Positions 1-11,740 of a stretch of 21,689 bases of DNA are shown here, in pieces. This stretch comes from a virus: positions 1 to 21,689 of IMG/VR virus record IMGVR_UViG_3300030329_002785. One strand, 5' to 3'. The translations under genes were made by a program, and so were the position numbers. Under the pieces are notes generated by a model. It did not search any database and was not told where the DNA came from. It saw only the letters and a program-made list of their open reading frames with translations. Each line of letters starts with the position of its first letter. Position 1 is the stretch's first letter.

Positions 1-362
1 TGCCTTCCCTGTAGATTGTCAGGAACATCTAATGCCCCTTGCCACTTACGAGGTGGCACATTATAAAGTTCTATCTCGTGTGCAGATGCTATTCCCTTCC
101 ATAATCCATAATTATAACCAAACCTAAATGCCCCTACCCTACCATCACCGGGAAATGTCCATACATGCTCAATGAACAATATAACATCATCATTACTATT
201 AGCCATTCCTATCCCTGCCTCAAATATCCCTGCCATTTCATGCACGGTCTTAGGACATCTAAGAGCCTTAATATAATCATTGTCCATTTCTGGTTTTATG
301 ACGGCTATCCCCCCATTCATTCCGGGGTCTATTCCTACAAATAACTTCTTTTCATATTCCAT
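1..362 (-). CDS. RuvC-like Holliday junction resolvase (C-terminus cut by window edge)
   Basis: The first 120 residues are visible. They open with MEYEKKLFVGIDPGMNGGIA, whose GIDPG is the first acidic motif of RuvC-type RNase H-fold resolvases. A second acidic residue follows in ILFIEHV at about residue 65, the usual strand position of the catalytic Glu. The C-terminal acidic residues lie beyond the window. The ATG at 362 overlaps the end of the helicase gene by 11 bases, so the two are translationally coupled. Inferred role: cleaving branched DNA before packaging or during recombination. The fold assignment is fairly safe, but the exact resolvase family is not decided. Confidence 0.8.
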   Translation of the reverse strand, partial: MEYEKKLFVGIDPGMNGGIAVIKPEMDNDYIKALRCPKTVHEMAGIFEAGIGMANSNDDVILFIEHVWTFPGDGRVGAFRFGYNYGLWKGIASAHEIELYNVPPRKWQGALDVPDNLQGR

Positions 363-1680
363 ACTTACGAGCCTCCTTAAACTCTTCCATTGTGTTATAT
401 AACTTAACTTTATCTCCATCAAACCCAAGTTTAACAGAGCCTGAATTTCCGTACCTTACCTTTGAGCCTATGATTTCTATACCATTTGCTCCTACTTTGG
501 ACTTTGCGAAATTAATTTTATAATCATAAAAAACAAACCATACATTCTCAGCAACTTGCTCTATTGAGCCTGATTCTGCAAGGTCTGACAACATAGGTCT
601 TTGATTCATTCTACTCTCTAATGCCCTGTTTAATTGCGATACAAGAATAGCACAAGAACCCGTTGACTTTGCTAACCATTTATAATTATTAACAATACTT
701 TCTAATTGCAATCTTCTTTGCTCCATTGGATTATCAGGGCGTATAAGCTGAATATAATCATCAATTACAATATCAGGCTTAAACTTTTTAACCTCTGAAG
801 CACTTGAGTTAAAATCTTTAAGGTTATCGAACATTGCAAACTTATTTTCTGAGTATTTATCTATAATTGCTTGCTTTACTTTTTGTAGTTCTGCCATGCC
901 TTGCATATCAAAAACACCTCTACGAATCATCCCGTAGGAAAGGTCGCCACTTTCTAATGCAATAAGTTTCTTCAACATCTCCGTGTTAGTCATCTCCCTA
1001 TTAAATAGAACTACCTTTTTATTATTTTCTATAAAACTCTTTATAAGATTGATTGTAAAAGTGGTTTTCCCATGACCCGGTCTTCCCCCCACAATAGTAA
1101 TTTCACCCCTTGTCATACCTCCAGACAGGTCATCTAATCCTGTAAAACCAGTTCTAATAAGATTTCCCTGCCCAGTTTCTATGTCAGATATGACATTATT
1201 CATAGCATTATCTATATCAAAGGTTTCCCCCGGTCTTATCTCTATGAGTTCACCTATCAATGAGTGAGCATCAGTAAGGGTATCATATACTGCAACATGA
1301 TTATTTGATGCAAGGCTTTGTATTTCAGAAGTTCTTTCTATTATAAGCCTTAATAGATACTTTTCATAAATTGACTTTGCATATACGATTGCAAGAGATT
1401 TGCCTACAGAATAATTATATAAACCTGTTAAATAATAATGAGTTAGACCAGCAGACTTTTCACCTTCAGTTAAAGATTCTGCAATGGTTATTAGGTCAAC
1501 ATGGTATCCAGCAGCTACCATATTACCTATCTTATTCCATAATAGTTTACTTGTTTTCTTATAAAGCGTATGCTCGTTAATATAATTCAAAACATCATTG
1601 AAGATAGACGAATCCTCAATAACTGCTCCCAACAAGGCATCTTCTGCCTCTGAAGCACTTGGCATTTTTACTTTGCTCAT
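352..1680 (-). CDS. DnaB-type replicative DNA helicase
   Basis: At 442 residues this has the normal DnaB length. An N-terminal helical domain (about residues 8-110, EDALLGAVI then LITIAESL) is followed by the RecA-like ATPase. The Walker A is GGRPGHGKTT at about 198-207, the Walker B is DIVIDDYIQLI at about 303-313, and SQLNRALESR is the later RecA-family motif. It should form the hexameric helicase that unwinds the phage DNA ahead of the polymerase. The start overlaps the stop of the upstream small gene (ATGA), with AAAGGATGG as ribosome binding site. No primase, loader or polymerase is visible in the window, so these are either outside it or supplied by the host. Confidence 0.95.
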   Translation of the reverse strand: MSKVKMPSASEAEDALLGAVIEDSSIFNDVLNYINEHTLYKKTSKLLWNKIGNMVAAGYHVDLITIAESLTEGEKSAGLTHYYLTGLYNYSVGKSLAIVYAKSIYEKYLLRLIIERTSEIQSLASNNHVAVYDTLTDAHSLIGELIEIRPGETFDIDNAMNNVISDIETGQGNLIRTGFTGLDDLSGGMTRGEITIVGGRPGHGKTTFTINLIKSFIENNKKVVLFNREMTNTEMLKKLIALESGDLSYGMIRRGVFDMQGMAELQKVKQAIIDKYSENKFAMFDNLKDFNSSASEVKKFKPDIVIDDYIQLIRPDNPMEQRRLQLESIVNNYKWLAKSTGSCAILVSQLNRALESRMNQRPMLSDLAESGSIEQVAENVWFVFYDYKINFAKSKVGANGIEIIGSKVRYGNSGSVKLGFDGDKVKLYNTMEEFKEARKYGI

Positions 1681-3427: not shown

Positions 3428-3574
3428 TTACCTATACCGATAAAAAGTGGACTTGGAAATCCGTAATAAAGATAACAAGGTGCTTGCCCTTATTCCAAGA
3501 ACTTTATGTAAAAATAACCCTATCCTTAGCTTGAATCGAGTCCGTTTAGAACGGCAATTCTTCAAGTTCGACAT
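3428..3574 (-). CDS. Possible helix-turn-helix micro-protein (48 aa)
   Basis: ATG at 3574, inside the last 29 bases of the single-strand-binding-like gene, with GGGGAAG about 7 bases upstream. The very basic product (MSNLKNCRSKRTRFKLRIG at its start) ends VLGIRASTLLSLLRISKSTF followed by YRYR, which reads like a helix-turn-helix with recognition helix ISKSTFYRY. Against it: CGG and AGG Arg codons are more frequent than in the neighbours, and the protein is short. It could be a small regulator or excisionase-like DNA binder, or chance. Confidence 0.4.
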   Translation of the reverse strand: MSNLKNCRSKRTRFKLRIGLFLHKVLGIRASTLLSLLRISKSTFYRYR

Positions 3575-4157
3575 CTACTTCTTCCCCATCTTTCCATAGG
3601 TTAATAGATTTAACTTCAAGGCTTGTCCTCTCAATTCCATCTTTGCCTGTCCAAGGTTTGCCAAAATCTACATTAGCAAGTACAGGCTTTCCTAAAAAGT
3701 CCTTAGCATCTAATGTTGGTAATCCCTTAACAGTTCTTTTTTCGCCATCAATTTCAACCTCTATATCTGGACAAGTAATCCCAAGAGCCTCTGCAGTTTC
3801 CATAAACTTTCTATTACCACCGGGATTACCTTCAAAATCATCACCCAACTCCGGTGCTAAAAAGCGAAAAACTCCTTGAGACCTAATCTCTCTTCCTACA
3901 TACTCAACCCCTGATACACTTTTAGGCGTTCCATCAATGTCTTCTACTTGATAGGTTCTTGTCTTAGCAGTAGTGTCAACCTTGACTATAAAATTATAAA
4001 TACAAGCCTTGTATTTATTTCTTACAGACCTTACTGCTGTATCACATTTAATTATATGTGCAGGATACACACCCTTTGCAAGCCTTGTATTAGTTTTCTC
4101 TTGCGAAGGGTCAAAGTAGTCTGTTGTTGTTGTCATTGTTTCTGCAACTGTACTCAT
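3546..4157 (-). CDS. Probable phage single-stranded DNA-binding protein (DUF669-like)
   Basis: 203 residues. The first 25 are Thr-rich. The body is beta-rich with charged strands (ACIYNFIVKVDTTAKTRTYQ, later GKPVLANVDFGKPW), as in OB-fold phage ssDNA-binding proteins. The end is acidic and finishes VDVELEELPF, like the acidic-Pro-Phe tail through which SSB proteins recruit partners. It follows directly after the Rad52-like gene (GGAGAAAG ribosome binding site inside that gene's end), the usual pairing of annealing protein and SSB. Expected to coat single strands in replication and recombination. The family call rests on length, tail and context. Confidence 0.6.
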   Translation of the reverse strand: MSTVAETMTTTTDYFDPSQEKTNTRLAKGVYPAHIIKCDTAVRSVRNKYKACIYNFIVKVDTTAKTRTYQVEDIDGTPKSVSGVEYVGREIRSQGVFRFLAPELGDDFEGNPGGNRKFMETAEALGITCPDIEVEIDGEKRTVKGLPTLDAKDFLGKPVLANVDFGKPWTGKDGIERTSLEVKSINLWKDGEEVDVELEELPF

Positions 4158-4158
4158 T

Positions 4159-4776
4159 TTATCTTTCTCCTATTAGTGTTGTTATCTTCTTCATTGTTGC
4201 TTCATAATTAGTTCTATTGATTGTCATTTTTTCAATACCACTTTCTATCTTCGCAACGGTTTTTTCATCTTTGAGGTTCTTAAGGCTATCCTTAATAGCT
4301 TTTAACTGCGAAGGTTCTAAGCTAATATCCTCAATTCTTTTTCTATATACATCATCAGCAATATTACATAGTCTATTTACTGCTACTTTAAAGCAATCAG
4401 AATTTGCAGACTTCATATCATTGCCAATATCTACATAATCACCGGTCTTTGTAGATGTCATAACTCTATGAGCATCAATAGCATCAAAGTGCCGTTCTAC
4501 ACCACTATCAACTATTGTTAATCTGCCATGTACTGATATAACCTTATCTCCAATAAACTCATACTTAATAATCTCCCATTTCCATATAGGAAAATGAGTA
4601 TTTAGCATGTGCCTCATATAAGCTTCATCTACATAGTCAAAACCCTGCTGTTCCTTAATATAATAAGCAGGAGTATCAATCTCTGATACTTCTGTATGCC
4701 TTACTATGACATCAGTTTCTAACTCCATTAGAGCCGTGCTTTGAACTATATTGCTGTTCATTTTACCATTCTTCAT
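4159..4776 (-). CDS. Rad52-like single-strand annealing protein
   Basis: 205 residues. The central part has the Rad52/Rad22-type pattern: WKWEIIKYEFIGDKVISVHG, strand-strand-turn, then an acidic/His stretch (HFDAIDAHRV), and a helix with NDMKSANSDCFKVAVNRLCN, which matches the conserved alternation of Ala, Ser, Asp and Lys that precedes the LG/LC turn in this superfamily. The C-terminal 55 residues are a charged helical tail. Such proteins form rings that anneal complementary strands, usually with an exonuclease and SSB partner, both encoded nearby. GGAGAG lies before the ATG at 4776. Confidence 0.75.
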   Translation of the reverse strand: MKNGKMNSNIVQSTALMELETDVIVRHTEVSEIDTPAYYIKEQQGFDYVDEAYMRHMLNTHFPIWKWEIIKYEFIGDKVISVHGRLTIVDSGVERHFDAIDAHRVMTSTKTGDYVDIGNDMKSANSDCFKVAVNRLCNIADDVYRKRIEDISLEPSQLKAIKDSLKNLKDEKTVAKIESGIEKMTINRTNYEATMKKITTLIGER

Positions 4777-4785
4777 TTTACTCTC

Positions 4786-4905
4786 CTATTTTAAAATTAT
4801 ATAAAAAATTATCCAATACCAAAATATAACACACCATACAGATACTGCTAAAAATATCATCCCTCTTGCTACAAAAGATAATAATTTAATGATTTTGTCA
4901 ATCAT
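4786..4905 (-). CDS. Single-pass membrane mini-protein (39 aa)
   Basis: MIDKIIKLLSFVARGMIFLA followed by VSVWCVIFWYWIIFYIILK: a short amphipathic start and one long hydrophobic segment. The start overlaps the previous stop (TAATG at 4905). No family recognised; it could be a membrane-active early protein. Confidence 0.6.
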   Translation of the reverse strand: MIDKIIKLLSFVARGMIFLAVSVWCVIFWYWIIFYIILK

Positions 4906-5261
4906 TATGCTTTACCTATGATATTGTTTTCTTCTAAGAAATCCTTAATATCCCCAATTTCTTTAGGAATATCTTCAATATCCTCATCAAGCCAATGCCA
5001 CATCATTTCGCAAAACTCTTCATAATCAACATCCTTTGTTTTAGTATCTTTTAAGAATAGTTTATAAAAGTCTCTTAATTCATTTTTAGCTTCATGCTTC
5101 CAAAATACAAACATTGTGTATTGATTTAAACTTAGGTCTCCAATTTGCCTATCTTTTATTAGTTTGCAAAAATCATTTACAATAGCTTCTCTATTTGTAT
5201 CTGCAAATTCTTCAGCTCGTTTAATCGCTTCTTCTATTTCGTGTGTTTTACTAATTAGCAT
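4905..5261 (-). CDS. Acidic helical hypothetical protein (118 aa)
   Basis: The ATG at 5261 (MLISKTHEIEEAIKRAEEFA) has AAGGAG 7 bases upstream and overlaps the nuclease gene end by 11 bases; an in-frame start at 5342 would run deep into that gene and is less likely. The protein is helical with a strongly acidic C-terminal part (MMWHWLDEDIEDIPKEIGDI). Not recognised. Its place between the nuclease and the annealing protein suggests part of the recombination module. Confidence 0.65.
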   Translation of the reverse strand: MLISKTHEIEEAIKRAEEFADTNREAIVNDFCKLIKDRQIGDLSLNQYTMFVFWKHEAKNELRDFYKLFLKDTKTKDVDYEEFCEMMWHWLDEDIEDIPKEIGDIKDFLEENNIIGKA

Positions 5262-5709
5262 CGCATAACTCCTTATATTGACAGTATTTACATTCCCAAT
5301 CCATAACAGGTGCTTCTCCATCTTGCAATGAAGGCAACCCATTCTTGTGCAGGTCTAAAACTCTTGTCCAATAGTTATAACTTTGGTCAATAAAGTCTAA
5401 ATCAACCTCAACCTCTTTAATCACAGAAGTATCTTTGTTATAACAGGTGAGGAACAAACCATCACATCTACCATACTCCTCCCTAATAGCATATCCATAA
5501 GTGCCTAATTGCAACTCTTGGTGGATGGATGGCTTGCCCTCTTTTTTCCTTCCAAATTTATAACGCCAAGACCAACTTCCTACTGTCTTAATATCATAAA
5601 TAAAAACCTCGCCACTCTCCATTATAACAACCACATCTATAAAGCCTTTGACATTTAATTCAGGAATATCAACAGGATGTTCTACTATAATATCTTTTAC
5701 TCCGTCCAT
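5251..5709 (-). CDS. Cas4/RecB-like PD-(D/E)XK nuclease, C-terminal half
   Basis: 152 residues carry the core of the nuclease fold: GFIDVVVIMESGEVFIYDIK (the D...(D/E)xK centre, residues about 22-41), then HQELQLGTYGYAI (motif Q at about 63-75), and a C-terminal CKYCQYKELC cluster that in Cas4-type enzymes gives three of the four Fe-S cysteines. What is missing, the first Cys and the His of the N-terminal motif, is found in the separate gene at 6202-6456. Its own ATG at 5709 has AGGAG and a TAATG overlap, so it is translated independently. Likely a 5'-3' exonuclease partner of the annealing protein, working as a two-chain enzyme. Confidence 0.75.
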   Translation of the reverse strand: MDGVKDIIVEHPVDIPELNVKGFIDVVVIMESGEVFIYDIKTVGSWSWRYKFGRKKEGKPSIHQELQLGTYGYAIREEYGRCDGLFLTCYNKDTSVIKEVEVDLDFIDQSYNYWTRVLDLHKNGLPSLQDGEAPVMDWECKYCQYKELCDAN

Positions 5710-5879
5710 TAAAATTCTCCTGTAATAGCATCACATACTTTATAATCTTCCTGCTCTCTAATAAAATCACACATGCAATTATTACACATATAATCTCCAT
5801 AACAATTAACATTTAAGTCCGTAGTATAATAGACATTGCCACATTCACCATCACATAATTTGGTTATTCTTTTACTCAC
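5709..5879 (-). CDS. Zinc-ribbon mini-protein (56 aa), GTG start
   Basis: The GTG at 5879 has AAAGGAG 6 bases upstream. Cysteines: KLCDGECGN, later YMCNNCMCDF and KVCDA. At least four Cys suit a zinc ribbon. It lies between the two halves of the nuclease and overlaps the start of the C-terminal half. Function unknown. Confidence 0.7.
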   Translation of the reverse strand: MSKRITKLCDGECGNVYYTTDLNVNCYGDYMCNNCMCDFIREQEDYKVCDAITGEF

Positions 5880-5896
5880 TATTTACTCCTTTACTT

Positions 5897-6073
5897 TTAA
5901 ACTTCTTCGGTTTCCATTTCATTCCAAACTTCTAAATTGGAACTTTCTATTTCTAATTGATTGCTTAATAATTTGCCTTCATATATCTCCATAGCTTCAA
6001 ATTCGTCTAATGCTTCAATTATAACAGCAGGGTAGAGATTAACTACAGAGCCTTTAATTAAAAATGTTTTCAT
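5897..6073 (-). CDS. Acidic hypothetical protein (58 aa)
   Basis: ATG at 6073 with AAAGGAG immediately upstream. MKTFLIKGSVVNLYPAVII begins a short strand-rich part, followed by an acidic helical tail rich in Glu. No family recognised. It is the second small gene lying between the two nuclease halves. Confidence 0.65.
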   Translation of the reverse strand: MKTFLIKGSVVNLYPAVIIEALDEFEAMEIYEGKLLSNQLEIESSNLEVWNEMETEEV

Positions 6074-6201
6074 TTTCTCCTTTTTTTCTTTCTTTCTTTT
6101 TATTCTTTTTTCTTTCTTTCTTTTTTTTGTTTATAGTATTATATAATATTATATATAACTACTAAAGAAAAAGAAAAAAAGAATAAAAAAGAAAAAGAAA
6201 A
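6073..6201 (+). repeat. Pyrimidine/purine inverted repeat with AT-rich centre
   Basis: On the plus strand, a nearly pure T/C run (about 6073-6128) is followed by an AT-rich centre (TATAGTATTATATAATATTA, about 6133-6163) and a nearly pure A/G run (about 6164-6201). The arms are imperfect complements, and each carries the single interruption TTTTATTCTTTTTT or its complement, so a long hairpin or unusual duplex is possible. It lies in the gap between the N-terminal nuclease half and the small genes. It may be a terminator, an origin-like element or a hotspot of rearrangement. Confidence 0.6.
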
Positions 6202-6456
6202 TTAATTATCCTTCAATGCTTTTATAAGCATATCTTGGATGTCCTTGTGTACGATTTCGCCCAACCTCATTATCCTTGCACTTCTGCTATCAACAGGATT
6301 AGTAGGTTCAGCCTTTTCAATAGATTCAAAGTAAATTTTTCTTGCACACATACCAGAACTACTTGCTCTGTATTTGCTATCTGTTTTTGGATTCTTTTCT
6401 CGATATTCTTTTCGAGAATTTTCAATCATTTTATCGTAAGTTTCATCAAGTTTCAT
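6202..6456 (-). CDS. Cas4/RecB-like nuclease, N-terminal half
   Basis: 84 residues. SSSGMCARKIYFESI (about 33-47) is the N-terminal Cys motif of Cas4-like nucleases, and RIMRLGEIVHKDIQDML (about 62-78) is the helix with the conserved His of motif I. The protein then stops, exactly where the catalytic Asp strand should begin; that part is encoded separately at 5251-5709. Together the two would have about 236 residues, a normal length for a phage Cas4-like enzyme. The start at 6456 (MKLDETYDKMIEN) follows a promoter and repeat region but only a weak AAGGGG-like site. Confidence 0.75.
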   Translation of the reverse strand: MKLDETYDKMIENSRKEYREKNPKTDSKYRASSSGMCARKIYFESIEKAEPTNPVDSRSARIMRLGEIVHKDIQDMLIKALKDN

Positions 6457-6497: not shown

Positions 6498-6629
6498 AAA
6501 TATAAGAACATTATTGAACATCATCAAAGAATTTTTTTGGGAAATGTTGGAATATAACCCTGATTCCCACAAATATAAGAGGAGAATTCCCAAAATATAA
6601 GGGCATTTTCCCACTTCTTGAAATATAAG
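6498..6629 (+). repeat. AAATATAAG direct repeats upstream of the recombination operon
   Basis: Identical AAATATAAG copies at 6498-6506, 6571-6579, 6593-6601 and 6621-6629, plus a degenerate one (GAATATAAC) at 6550-6558. Two of them share a longer unit TTCCCA(c)AAATATAAG with a 22-base period, close to two helical turns. The region has no gene. Possible operators, iterons of an origin, or a phage-specific promoter element. Confidence 0.6.
6499..6527 (-). promoter_or_regulatory. Candidate sigma70-like promoter for the recombination operon
   Basis: In the minus strand, TTGATG (6527-6522) and TATATT (6504-6499) are 17 bases apart and sit about 45 bases before the start of the nuclease N-half. 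The -10 lies inside the first AAATATAAG repeat, so a protein binding the repeats could control it. Confidence 0.45.
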
Positions 6630-6723: not shown

Positions 6724-6822
6724 TTAGAAGAATTGGTCTAAGATAAGTTCACCTATTACACATATTAATACTACTGCTATTGCTACTAACAACCCTTCCA
6801 TTGATGCCTGTATTATTTCCAC
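6724..6822 (-). CDS. Membrane micro-protein (32 aa), GTG start
   Basis: The GTG at 6822 overlaps the stop of the glutamine amidotransferase gene (TAGTG), with GGAG 7 bases upstream. The product VEIIQASMEGLLVAIAVVLI continues CVIGELILDQFF: a single hydrophobic helix. Its GELIL stretch also appears at the start of the 22-residue gene at 9620-9688. No family known to me. Confidence 0.5.
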   Translation of the reverse strand: MEIIQASMEGLLVAIAVVLICVIGELILDQFF

Positions 6823-7685
6823 TATGCTACTCCTTTGCTATTATTATTTTCATAGGTATTGATTTCATCTTCTATTTCGCTACAATCTAAGCACATCCAT
6901 ATATAGGCATCCCTATCATCAGAATAGTAATCACCTACATTAGTGTGGTATAGGTCTTTGCATTCTGCTCCACACCAGCCACATATTAGCTCTTCTTTGT
7001 AGGATGATTTTATACCTACAAAGTCCTTTTTCTCTGAGATTTTATTGCTTTCTAAATAGTCATAGGCAAAATCATTATCTAATTCACCATAACTTATTTT
7101 ATCCTCAGGGTACTTGTAGCTATATGTAGTAGGATAGAAACTACGCTTTTCGTGGTTCTTGTTAGAAAACCATACTCCCTTCTCCCAAGTTCCTAACTTC
7201 TCATTGATTATCTTAAAAGAGCCATCACTATTAAGGAAAGCTAATTTAGACGAACCTATAAAACCTGCTATTAGTTTTAATAGGATAGCATCAGATAGGA
7301 ATGATTTCTTTAGGTTTTTTAGAATATCTCTATTAAATACCTGAGTATCTGATAACTTCTTATCATAATCAACTTCGTTAATTATCCCGTTGTGAGCAAA
7401 TACCATACCCTTCTTAACTTTAAACGGATGTACATTATATGTACCCTCATTAAGTCCGTGTGTAGCTAATCTAAAGTGTAATAAGAATGGTGAACTACTA
7501 CCATATTCTCTAATATCTTTAAGATAACTATTCAGGAACTTATTATATCTCCTAAACTTTTTAGTAGTTATCTTATTATTATTAGTGTAAGAATACCCTA
7601 CTCCGTCAGGATTACTATCATAAGCTGATTTTAGAGTATCTTGGTCTATGTTAGTATTCTGCTCTTGCATTACTAATAAACACAT
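6822..7685 (-). CDS. Class II glutamine amidotransferase (Ntn hydrolase) with C-terminal zinc ribbon
   Basis: 287 residues beginning MCLLV: removal of Met exposes Cys2, the nucleophile of class II amidotransferases. LHFRLATHG (about 69-77), NVHPF (84-88) and FAHNGII (96-102) are the glutamine-binding Arg and oxyanion Asn-Gly motifs. The C-terminal third adds CGWCGAEC and MCLDC (about 235-270), a zinc ribbon. There is no synthase domain, so it should act as a glutaminase giving ammonia to a partner. The obvious partner is the amidoligase encoded 34 bases upstream in the same operon. AGGAGAA precedes the ATG. Confidence 0.85.
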   Translation of the reverse strand: MCLLVMQEQNTNIDQDTLKSAYDSNPDGVGYSYTNNNKITTKKFRRYNKFLNSYLKDIREYGSSSPFLLHFRLATHGLNEGTYNVHPFKVKKGMVFAHNGIINEVDYDKKLSDTQVFNRDILKNLKKSFLSDAILLKLIAGFIGSSKLAFLNSDGSFKIINEKLGTWEKGVWFSNKNHEKRSFYPTTYSYKYPEDKISYGELDNDFAYDYLESNKISEKKDFVGIKSSYKEELICGWCGAECKDLYHTNVGDYYSDDRDAYIWMCLDCSEIEDEINTYENNNSKGVA

Positions 7686-7719: not shown

Positions 7720-9369
7720 TTAAAAGTCCAGACCTTCTGGAATTTCTAATGGGAAGCTAACTACCCTATCTAATTTGTTAATATTATCATCAAAGTATTT
7801 ATTAAGATTTGGGTAGTGTTTTCTTTCAGACCTACAATAATCTATATAGCTTGGTAGTTTTAACCTATACAAAGGGTTGTTCTTAGTAAAGTAGAATAGG
7901 CTATCTACAAATTCTACATTCTTTAAGAAAGATAACTCTAATAAATTACCCTTAAATATTCTAACTTCTACTGTATGCTTGTGTTGTAGGTTTACAGGGA
8001 CATACTTATCTCCAAAGACTATATAACTTTTATAGGCTTTTTCATCTATTATTCCATTGTAATAGTTATCTCTTTTCATAGCTCGTAATCTGCTTACTAT
8101 TTCCTTTTTAGCTTTATCTTTAAAACTATTATTAAACCTTGACCAGTTATTTAATTCTGATACTCTTTTACGCTGGCTAATTAGATAGATAAGTGATTTA
8201 TATTCGTGGATAAAGCTAATAAATTTTATTAGGTGATGGTCTGAGAAGCTATTTTTGCTAATATGTATGTGCATACCACAGGTATTAGTATTGTAAGATT
8301 GTAACCTATCTGTTCCCCTGTGCTTAAATATTGCTTCGTAGAAATTAAAACTCTTAATAGCATTGTAGGTCATAGGATGGGTACATATCTCAAAGCCGTG
8401 ACTTAGGCTACCATCTTCTTTACAATATAGTATATCTTTATCAAAGTAATTTGTAATTTCAGTAGCATATTCACCTTTGCTACCACCACCCTTTACTTCT
8501 ACTTCAAGTTCGCAACCATAGAAGGGAACTTTGCTATTATCTTTACTAACAGCTACTATCTCGTTACCCTTAGTATCATAAAATGATAGCATAGGCTTAT
8601 ATGAATAGCTATGAATATTCCTATTATCTCTATTAGACTCATATTCATTATTACATTCATTGCAGTAGGAAGCACCTCGTTCATCAATATAGTACAAATT
8701 ATCATAGTGAGTGGTGTAGTCACAGTCTTCACAGTAGCCGTAGCTATCTTCATAGCAACTTCGACAGACATAGTAAGAAGATTCTATTAGCATCATATCA
8801 TTAGTAGTAAGGTCGCAGTAGTCTTCACAATGTTCACAGGTTGTAGATTCATTTAGTAGAATAGTAGAAACTAAATCACCTTCAATGCTACTACCGTCAT
8901 AATGCATATAGCAATCTGCTTCATTGTAAAAAATAGATTTATTATTATAGTTATTATAGGGATAGTCAATTTCCTTATAATCATTATTACTAATATCCTC
9001 TGCTACATTTGAATCTGACAGGTTATTAAGTCCTTGTAGTAAGTCTATTAATTGGTATAAATACTCTTTATTATCTGTATTATTATTAATATTTTTAACA
9101 ATTTCCACAGCATAATTAGTAATGGTTATAATGTTTCCTTCGTCTGCTCTGCTATTAGTATAGTAGAGATAATTATAACTATTATCAAGCATATTAGAAA
9201 CATTGTAACCTATATTAAGAGTATTGCTATAATTAAACTGAGGGTATCTAATAAAGCTCTTAATAGTATGGTCTGGCTCATTAGAACATACAAAGCCTAT
9301 TAACTTTGAGTTTGCTACCTTCCTGTAATAATAGTTATCATCTCTATAATAAACTTTAGTTATTTTCAT
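7720..9369 (-). CDS. Amidoligase_2-like (COOH-NH2 ligase) enzyme with N-terminal zinc ribbons
   Basis: 549 residues. Residues 1-170 are Asn/Tyr-rich and unplaced. Residues 178-239 hold at least nine Cys in CxxC-type pairs (CEHCEDYC, VCRSC, YCEDCD, YCNECN), a zinc-ribbon array. From about 282 the catalytic domain shows the amidoligase signatures: FYGCELEVEV (acidic pair), KEDGSLSHGFEI (acidic residues on adjacent strands), TCGMHIHIS (about 363-371) and HTVEVRIFKGN (about 467-477). This is the glutamine-synthetase-like COOH-NH2 ligase fold, known to be paired with class II amidotransferases. It likely forms an amide on a peptide, protein or surface compound using ATP; the substrate is unknown. 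AAAGGT precedes the ATG. Confidence 0.8.
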   Translation of the reverse strand: MKITKVYYRDDNYYYRKVANSKLIGFVCSNEPDHTIKSFIRYPQFNYSNTLNIGYNVSNMLDNSYNYLYYTNSRADEGNIITITNYAVEIVKNINNNTDNKEYLYQLIDLLQGLNNLSDSNVAEDISNNDYKEIDYPYNNYNNKSIFYNEADCYMHYDGSSIEGDLVSTILLNESTTCEHCEDYCDLTTNDMMLIESSYYVCRSCYEDSYGYCEDCDYTTHYDNLYYIDERGASYCNECNNEYESNRDNRNIHSYSYKPMLSFYDTKGNEIVAVSKDNSKVPFYGCELEVEVKGGGSKGEYATEITNYFDKDILYCKEDGSLSHGFEICTHPMTYNAIKSFNFYEAIFKHRGTDRLQSYNTNTCGMHIHISKNSFSDHHLIKFISFIHEYKSLIYLISQRKRVSELNNWSRFNNSFKDKAKKEIVSRLRAMKRDNYYNGIIDEKAYKSYIVFGDKYVPVNLQHKHTVEVRIFKGNLLELSFLKNVEFVDSLFYFTKNNPLYRLKLPSYIDYCRSERKHYPNLNKYFDDNINKLDRVVSFPLEIPEGLDF

Positions 9370-11627: not shown

Positions 11628-11640
11628 TGAACCCTTTTTT
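11611..11640 (+). terminator. Rho-independent terminator before the large terminase
   Basis: GGGTTC (11611-11616) pairs with GAACCC (11629-11634) across a 12-base loop holding the stop codon of the preceding gene, followed directly by TTTTTT and a longer T/C run. Confidence 0.7.
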
Positions 11641-11740
11641 CTTTTTTTTATTCTTTTTTTTTCTTTTTTAGGAGTATTATAGTAATAGTTGTTATGATAC
11701 TATTAGTATTATTAGTATTATATAGTATTAAATAATAGAA
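11635..11740 (+). repeat. Pyrimidine tract plus TAGTATTA-rich block upstream of the large terminase
   Basis: A T/C run (11635-11669, with the same TTTTATTCTTTTTT core as the element at 6073-6128) is followed by an AT-rich block with repeated TAGTATTA units (11687-11735). It occupies most of the 154-base gap between genes and resembles the left-arm element, which also joins a pyrimidine run to TATAGTATTA. It may contain the promoter of the packaging genes. Confidence 0.5.

What the first reader, a model, noticed from the sequence alone, without database searches (positions are those of the whole stretch)
5251..6456. Cas4/RecB-like nuclease split into two genes with a two-gene cassette between the halves
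Seen: the first conserved Cys and the motif-I His are in the 84-aa gene at 6202-6456; the Asp, D-x-K, motif Q and three remaining Cys are in the 152-aa gene at 5251-5709. The join falls in a loop before the catalytic strand, and the summed length is normal. Both halves have their own starts, and between them lie two small genes and a long inverted repeat. Inference: a naturally split, two-chain nuclease whose Fe-S cluster would be assembled across chains.
Basis: partly seen in the sequence, partly recalled or inferred. Interest (0 to 1): 0.75.

Follow-up and report, generated by a model that had tools for sequence, protein, structure and literature searches.

The report
Phage Cas4-like nuclease in two genes
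A group of uncultured phages encodes one Cas4/RecB-type DNA nuclease as two separate small genes with unrelated genes between them. All catalytic and iron-sulfur residues are kept, divided between the two proteins, so the enzyme probably has to be assembled from two chains.

Summary
The 84-aa gene (6456-6202, minus strand) and the 152-aa gene (5709-5251) match consecutive parts of one PHROG, phrog_1706 (model positions 29-101 and 115-244). The same split, at the same loop, occurs in eight other IMG/VR contigs, so it is not an assembly error. The intervening genes differ from phage to phage. About 130 related loci carry the fused gene. In them a hypervariable, AT-rich, low-complexity linker sits exactly where the split phages are broken. 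The motif-I His, both catalytic Asp, the Lys, the Q-x3-Y motif and all four cluster Cys are invariant in the split set, with one Cys and the His on the N chain. dN/dS is far below 1 on both halves (dS saturated). An AlphaFold model holding both halves matches Sulfolobus Cas4 (4IC1) across both (Z 16.9, 198 of 206 residues). The gene sits in an exonuclease-SSAP-SSB-helicase block. Best reading: a natural two-chain Cas4/RecB-like recombination exonuclease with a cross-chain Fe-S site. The kind (gene fission of a phage enzyme) is known from Aeh1 NrdA and T4-like gp43; I found no report of a split Cas4-type nuclease. Cross-chain Fe-S assembly and activity remain untested.

The parts
6202..6456 (-). 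N half of Cas4/RecB-like nuclease (84 aa): Fe-S Cys37 (SSSGMCARKIY) and motif-I His70 (LGEIVH)
   Evidence: phrog_1706 positions 29-101, E=1.4e-8; C37 and H70 invariant in 7 split N halves
5251..5709 (-). C half of the nuclease (152 aa): D25, D39-x-K41, Q67-x3-Y71, C140/C143/C149
   Evidence: PF12705 E=4.8e-11 positions 115-247 of 247; phrog_1706 positions 115-244 E=1e-10; residues invariant in 9 C halves
6074..6201 (-). Spacer between N half and first cassette gene: T-rich tract (TTTTCTTTTTCTTTTTTATTCTTTTTTTCTTTTTCTTT), AT-rich middle, A-rich arm; forms a long hairpin
   Evidence: T-rich tract conserved after the N-half stop in L007, L008, L009, L040
5897..6073 (-). Cassette gene 1, 58 aa, small protein of unknown function; homologues at the same place in L008 and L009, similar ORF in L007
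5709..5879 (-). Cassette gene 2, 56 aa, CxxC...CxxC (possible zinc ribbon); homologues at the same place in L009 and L006; stop overlaps the C-half ATG
4159..4776 (-). SSAP-like protein (205 aa) downstream; the type shared by all split phages with this neighbour on the contig
   Evidence: phrog_37405 E=6.9e-9; weak phrog_3290 single-strand annealing protein
3546..4157 (-). SSB-like protein with acidic C-terminus (203 aa), conserved next to the SSAP in the whole family (inferred function)
4905..5255 (-). 116-aa ORF of unknown function directly after the C half; overlaps its last codons
352..1680 (-). DnaB-like replicative helicase, same strand, end of the replication/recombination gene block
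   Evidence: PF03796 E=2.2e-49; phrog_19

Best explanation
The two genes encode the two chains of one Cas4/RecB-type PD-(D/E)XK nuclease, the recombination exonuclease partner of the phage SSAP. Shown: both ORFs belong to one family. The split is conserved and under purifying selection in a group of phages. All catalytic and cysteine residues are retained and divided between the chains. The fused form exists in relatives. Both halves together give a full Cas4 fold. Inferred: they are translated separately, probably from one mRNA starting at the N half, with the C half coupled to the preceding small gene by the TAATG overlap. The N chain (helical cap with Cys37 and His70) docks on the C chain (beta core with D, D-x-K, Q-x3-Y and three Cys). 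A [4Fe-4S] (or [2Fe-2S]) cluster bridges the chains, and the heterodimer resects DNA ends for the SSAP/SSB. Evolution: the gene broke in its disordered, AT-rich linker, and the resulting intergenic spacer then collected small genes.
For: Adjacent parts of one PHROG. Same split in the contigs of L008, L007, L009, L010, L012 and L027, plus N-only L040 and C-only L006 at contig edges. Fused relatives at about 50% identity with the break point inside their linker. Catalytic and Cys residues invariant in split N and C halves. dN/dS, NG86, about 0.11-0.33 (N) and 0.08-0.17 (C) where dS could be estimated. AlphaFold of both halves: about pLDDT 90 (N) and 95 (C). Best match 4IC1 Z 16.9, rmsd 3.0, 198 aligned, range 2..401, spanning both halves. 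A fused relative gives the same top match with Z 14.5. Nuclease-SSAP-SSB neighbourhood conserved.
Against: No biochemical or expression data. The AlphaFold test used a read-through chain with 165 junk residues between the halves (pTM 0.63), so the relative placement of the halves is helped by fused relatives in the alignment and is not an independent interface prediction. dS is saturated. The SSB role is inferred from position and its acidic tail; no family model matched.
Confidence: 0.82

Rival explanations
1. The halves are rejoined before function: self-splicing intron, trans-splicing, or programmed ribosome bypass produces one chain.
For: N and C ORFs happen to be in the same frame (6456-5709 = 747 nt); a strong hairpin lies in the spacer.
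Against: No Rfam intron match in the window or in nine relatives. The insert differs in length and gene content between phages (about 275 to 1120 nt; 1 to 4 ORFs). C halves have their own starts. 22 in-frame stops separate the halves.
Confidence: 0.05
2. Decaying gene: the C half alone is an incomplete or dead nuclease and the N ORF is a remnant.
For: Split genes are often pseudogenes (general knowledge); the N half has no Pfam match.
Against: Conserved over deep divergence (39-82% identity to the window's halves). N-half dN/dS about 0.11-0.33. His and Cys invariant. Synteny retained with SSAP and SSB.
Confidence: 0.04
3. The N protein has been co-opted as a separable regulator: the split exists to make nuclease (and Fe-S) assembly conditional, with the hairpin/T-rich spacer as a control point.
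For: Conserved spacer 70-130 nt after the N stop in every split phage, T-rich in clade A and with strong hairpins in clade B. N half is the first gene after terminator-like sequences (by eye).
Against: No expression data. The spacer could be a relic of the linker. The promoter scan is at chance level.
Confidence: 0.15
4. Assembly or sequencing artefact.
For: The window is a metagenomic virus contig.
Against: Same arrangement in eight other independently assembled contigs, with divergent sequences and different intervening genes.
Confidence: 0.01

Closest known systems
Phage Cas4-like / RecB-family nucleases (phrog_1706; PF12705)
   Same: Fold, catalytic motifs, four cysteines, neighbours of recombination genes
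   Different: Known members, and the closest fused relatives here, are single-chain; here two genes
Sulfolobus Cas4 SSO0001 (PDB 4IC1)
   Same: Best fold match, Z 16.9 over both halves; same C-terminal cysteine motif in the sequence alignment
   Different: Single chain; CRISPR-associated host protein rather than a phage SSAP partner
Split NrdA of Aeromonas phage Aeh1 (mobE insertion)
   Same: Enzyme divided into two co-assembling chains by an insertion in the gene, with hairpin control of the inserted ORF reported (PMC2988022)
   Different: Insert there is an HNH homing endonuclease in a critical region; here mostly small genes, in a dispensable linker. Only L008 carries a nuclease (PDDEXK_14)
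Split DNA polymerase 43A/43B of Aeromonas phages 25 and 44RR
   Same: Split enzyme with an untranslated intercistronic sequence or an endonuclease gene between the halves; in phage 25 the halves co-purify and have polymerase activity (PMC2988022)
   Different: Different enzyme; no Fe-S site known to be shared

Membership tests
Cas4/RecB-like PD-(D/E)XK nuclease (PF12705 / phrog_1706) | Motifs H, D, D/E-x-K, Q-x3-Y | tested here: met
   H70 (N chain), D25, D39-x-K41, Q67-x3-Y71 (C chain) invariant in the split set
Cas4/RecB-like PD-(D/E)XK nuclease (PF12705 / phrog_1706) | Four conserved Fe-S cysteines, one N-terminal and three C-terminal | tested here: met
   C37 on the N chain; C140, C143, C149 on the C chain, invariant. 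Sequence presence only
Cas4/RecB-like PD-(D/E)XK nuclease (PF12705 / phrog_1706) | Profile match above the curated cut-off | tested here: met
   C half PF12705 43.5 bits against a cut-off of 22; N half only through phrog_1706
Cas4/RecB-like PD-(D/E)XK nuclease (PF12705 / phrog_1706) | Single polypeptide (usual, not strictly defining) | tested here: not met
   Two ORFs in nine contigs
Cas4/RecB-like PD-(D/E)XK nuclease (PF12705 / phrog_1706) | Fe-S cluster binding and nuclease activity | not testable with these tools
   Needs protein
CRISPR-associated Cas4 (adaptation module) | Located next to cas1/cas2 | tested here: inconclusive
   Neighbours scanned are SSAP-like, SSB-like, helicase, GATase-like and amidoligase; no cas1/cas2 seen, but no dedicated profile search of every ORF was made and the contig is a fragment
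Phage SynExo (exonuclease + SSAP pair) | Exonuclease gene adjacent to SSAP gene | tested here: met
   SSAP of one type downstream in the split phages, another type in most fused relatives
Gene split by a free-standing homing endonuclease (Aeh1 type) | Endonuclease ORF in the insert | tested here: inconclusive
   Only L008 has a PDDEXK_14 ORF (PF24579 E=4.3e-9); the other inserts hold small ORFs without a nuclease match
Group I/II intron | Intron RNA core | tested here: not met
   No Rfam hit at gathering or relaxed threshold

The most novel reading that the evidence does not exclude
The nuclease gene family carries, at one fixed loop, an AT-rich/polypurine DNA segment kept for its DNA sequence rather than its protein sequence. 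This segment makes the gene repeatedly break (and possibly re-fuse) at that point, and in split phages the two-chain state is used as a switch: no Fe-S cluster and no active site until both chains are made. Support: linker codons are strongly shifted to AT-ending synonyms (GAA:GAG 279:11 against 1023:447 in the gene body); in the larger trees a fused clade is nested among split ones, although one split clade is not rejected (p-AU 0.086).
Probability: 0.2. Interest if true: 0.8.

Novelty: new variant of a known kind. Interest (0 to 1): 0.6.

Why it matters
It would be, as far as this search shows, the first natural two-chain Cas4/RecB-type nuclease, with an Fe-S site whose ligands come from two separately translated proteins. 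It gives a natural test of how Fe-S clusters are built across a subunit interface and whether the cluster is structural glue. It also offers a ready-made split nuclease that should be inactive until both chains are present. The many fused and split relatives make the fission/fusion history traceable.

Tried and rejected
Intron or structured RNA in the gap: Rfam at gathering and relaxed thresholds, nothing. Cellular or prophage relatives: two scans of 84,980 species genomes found none. Cultured phages: only distant matches, annotated as RecB/Cas4-type exonucleases (Streptomyces, Rhodobacter, Dp-1, Thermus). The Polaribacter phage with the same SSAP type has no detectable member next to it. Promoter scan in the region: at chance level. 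The polypurine element of the fused linkers is not repeated elsewhere at convincing quality in their contigs, so a general-promoter reading of it is not supported. I first thought the N half was the last gene of the upstream unit; the terminator-like sequences upstream of it (read by eye) suggest it is the first gene of the recombination operon instead. A single origin of the split looked supported with 24 sequences but not with 48-55, so I leave one-versus-several origins open.

Full report
Check of the observation. The two ORFs are as described. The 84-aa protein matches phrog_1706 (annotated 'CRISPR/Cas system associated') at model positions 29-101 (E=1.4e-8), and the 152-aa protein matches the same model at 115-244 (E=1e-10). 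The C half also matches PF12705 PDDEXK_1 at positions 115-247 of 247 (E=4.8e-11). Read in gene order they are consecutive pieces of one protein. Shine-Dalgarno-like sequences precede each ORF, and the C-half ATG overlaps the stop of the 56-aa gene (TAATG).

Same split elsewhere. Searches of IMG/VR brought relatives that I classified with profile HMMs of the N and C parts. Separate N and C ORFs are found in the window and in the contigs of L008/L005, L007/L034, L009/L011, L010/L017, L012/L043 and L027/L059. L040 shows the N half followed by the same kind of spacer up to the contig edge, and L006 shows a C half with its own start behind a homologue of the 56-aa gene. The intervening genes differ: L007 has one ORF (60 aa); L009 has two (63 and 50 aa); L010 one (79 aa); L027 one (80 aa); L012 three; L008 four, including a 168-aa PF24579 PDDEXK_14 'phage putative endonuclease' (E=4.3e-9). 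In total 132 loci (some from the same contig) carry one fused ORF of about 240-300 aa, including all 78 loci newly fetched in the last scan, which was seeded with a fused alignment.

Where the break lies. Aligned with fused relatives, the N half ends after the helix carrying the motif-I His and the C half begins just before the strand VEHxxxIxxLNVKGxxD. In fused relatives this place is a hypervariable, low-complexity linker: median 99 nt, range 33-138, median AT 79% against about 65% in the flanking domains, often of the form [TATAATAGAGATATA...][AAAGAAAAAGAAAATAAAGAAAAAGAA] (protein ...YNRDIYNRDKEKENKEKE...). Distant relatives have an 11-residue loop. Clade-B N halves of L012 and L027 end ...KRKEPKENI*, much like the fused L054 linker KRKEAKEKENIYI, followed by AT-rich DNA, as expected if a stop codon arose inside the linker. 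The non-coding spacer after the N stop (about 70-130 nt) has the size of the fused linker. Linker codons are strongly shifted to AT-ending synonyms relative to the gene body and to other K/E-rich stretches (sequences are not independent), so the linker has a DNA-level peculiarity, whether selected or the product of slippage.

Tree. With 24 sequences split forms were one group (74/97). With 48-55 sequences the split forms fall into clade A (window, L008, L009, L007) and clade B (L027, L010, L012), the latter holding a nested fused clade (L049, L058, L061, L062, L063). One split clade is not rejected (p-AU 0.086). So there was one fission with one re-fusion, or two or more fissions. The split phages with this neighbour on the contig, the nested fused clade and a few others share one SSAP type; most other fused relatives have a different, phrog_659 Sak-like SSAP.

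Function retained. In split phages C37 and H70 (N chain) and D25, D39-x-K41, Q67-x3-Y71, C140, C143 and C149 (C chain) are invariant. Rough NG86 dN/dS: N 0.11-0.33, C 0.08-0.17, compared with 0.3-0.55 and 0.4-0.85 for the two cassette genes; dS is saturated in most pairs. Downstream neighbours (SSAP, SSB-like protein) are conserved with both split and fused genes. This is the layout of a phage exonuclease/annealing-protein recombination pair, so resection of DNA ends for the SSAP is the likely role (inference).

Fold. I folded the window's own read-through translation (N half, 165 nonsense residues, C half) with an alignment of split halves and fused relatives: pLDDT about 90 over the N half and about 95 over the C half, pTM 0.63. 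The best solved match is Sulfolobus Cas4 SSO0001 (4IC1), Z 16.9, rmsd 3.0, 198 of 206 residues, range 2..401, i.e. through both halves; next come Cas4-Cas1-Cas2, AdnA, human EXO5, MGME1 and others. A fused relative gives the same top match with Z 14.5 over 194 residues. So the halves jointly contain one complete Cas4 fold. That they form it in trans is inferred; the fused rows of the alignment inform the docking.

Spacer. After the N stop, clade A shares a T-rich tract. The same kind of T-rich plus AT-rich sequence stands before the terminase gene in the window (about 11635-11740) and in L080. The window adds an A-rich arm that makes a long hairpin (z about -5); L010, L012 and L027 have strong hairpins (z -2.5 to -4.6); L007, L008 and L009 have none beyond chance. 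A role as terminator, attenuator or 5'-UTR element is possible but untested.

What is known. Phage enzymes divided by gene fission and working as two chains are known: NrdA of Aeh1 (mobE insertion; active), gene 43A/43B of Aeromonas phages 25 and 44RR (seg insertion or an untranslated intercistronic sequence; halves of phage 25 co-purify and are active) and T4 topoisomerase (PMC2988022). A survey of Cas4-family nucleases, including phage and pfam12705 members, has no occurrence of the word 'split' in its main text (PMC5704561), and a full-text search for split Cas4/RecB/exonuclease phrases found nothing. The finding is therefore a new variant of a known kind: fission of a phage enzyme, here one whose Fe-S site would be shared between chains.

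Noticed in passing
window 6498-6629 (-): All four CTTATATTT copies of the window lie, same strand, within 132 bp of the non-coding region upstream of the N half (chance mean 1.05). Not found upstream of the N half in L007, L008 or L009. Iterons or an operator are possible.
   Followed up: partly
window 11635-11740 (+); L080 about 928-1020: T-rich tract plus AT-rich sequence, like the one after the N half, just upstream of the terminase large subunit gene in two phages.
   Followed up: partly
window 6822-7685 (-) and 7720-9369 (-): Class-II glutamine amidotransferase-like protein (weak GATase_6, E=3.5e-4) next to an Amidoligase_2 protein (E=3.8e-7). The GATase-like gene is also upstream of the N half in L007, L008, L009 and L040.
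   Followed up: no
L012:3878-4000: Structured non-coding stretch directly before the C half: closing stem AUAGAGAG...CUCUCUAU, MFE -33.6, z -2.2, no Rfam match.
   Followed up: partly
L008:4722-5225: PDDEXK_14 putative endonuclease between the nuclease halves of the closest relative; a possible free-standing mobile endonuclease.
   Followed up: partly
upstream of the N half in window, L008, L009, L007, L010, L012, L027: Terminator-like hairpins upstream of the N-half start, most clearly in L010, L012 and L027 (read by eye). The N half may start its own operon.
   Followed up: no
L026:2-646: At the contig edge the C half is joined in frame to about 65 residues of unrelated sequence that looks like a virion-protein fragment; probably an assembly chimera.
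   Followed up: no
fused relatives, e.g. L025:3932, L029:3911: The linker DNA is made of lineage-specific short repeats (GGTACT, TGTTACAAGTAA, TATAATAGAGA), unlike the rest of the gene.
   Followed up: partly
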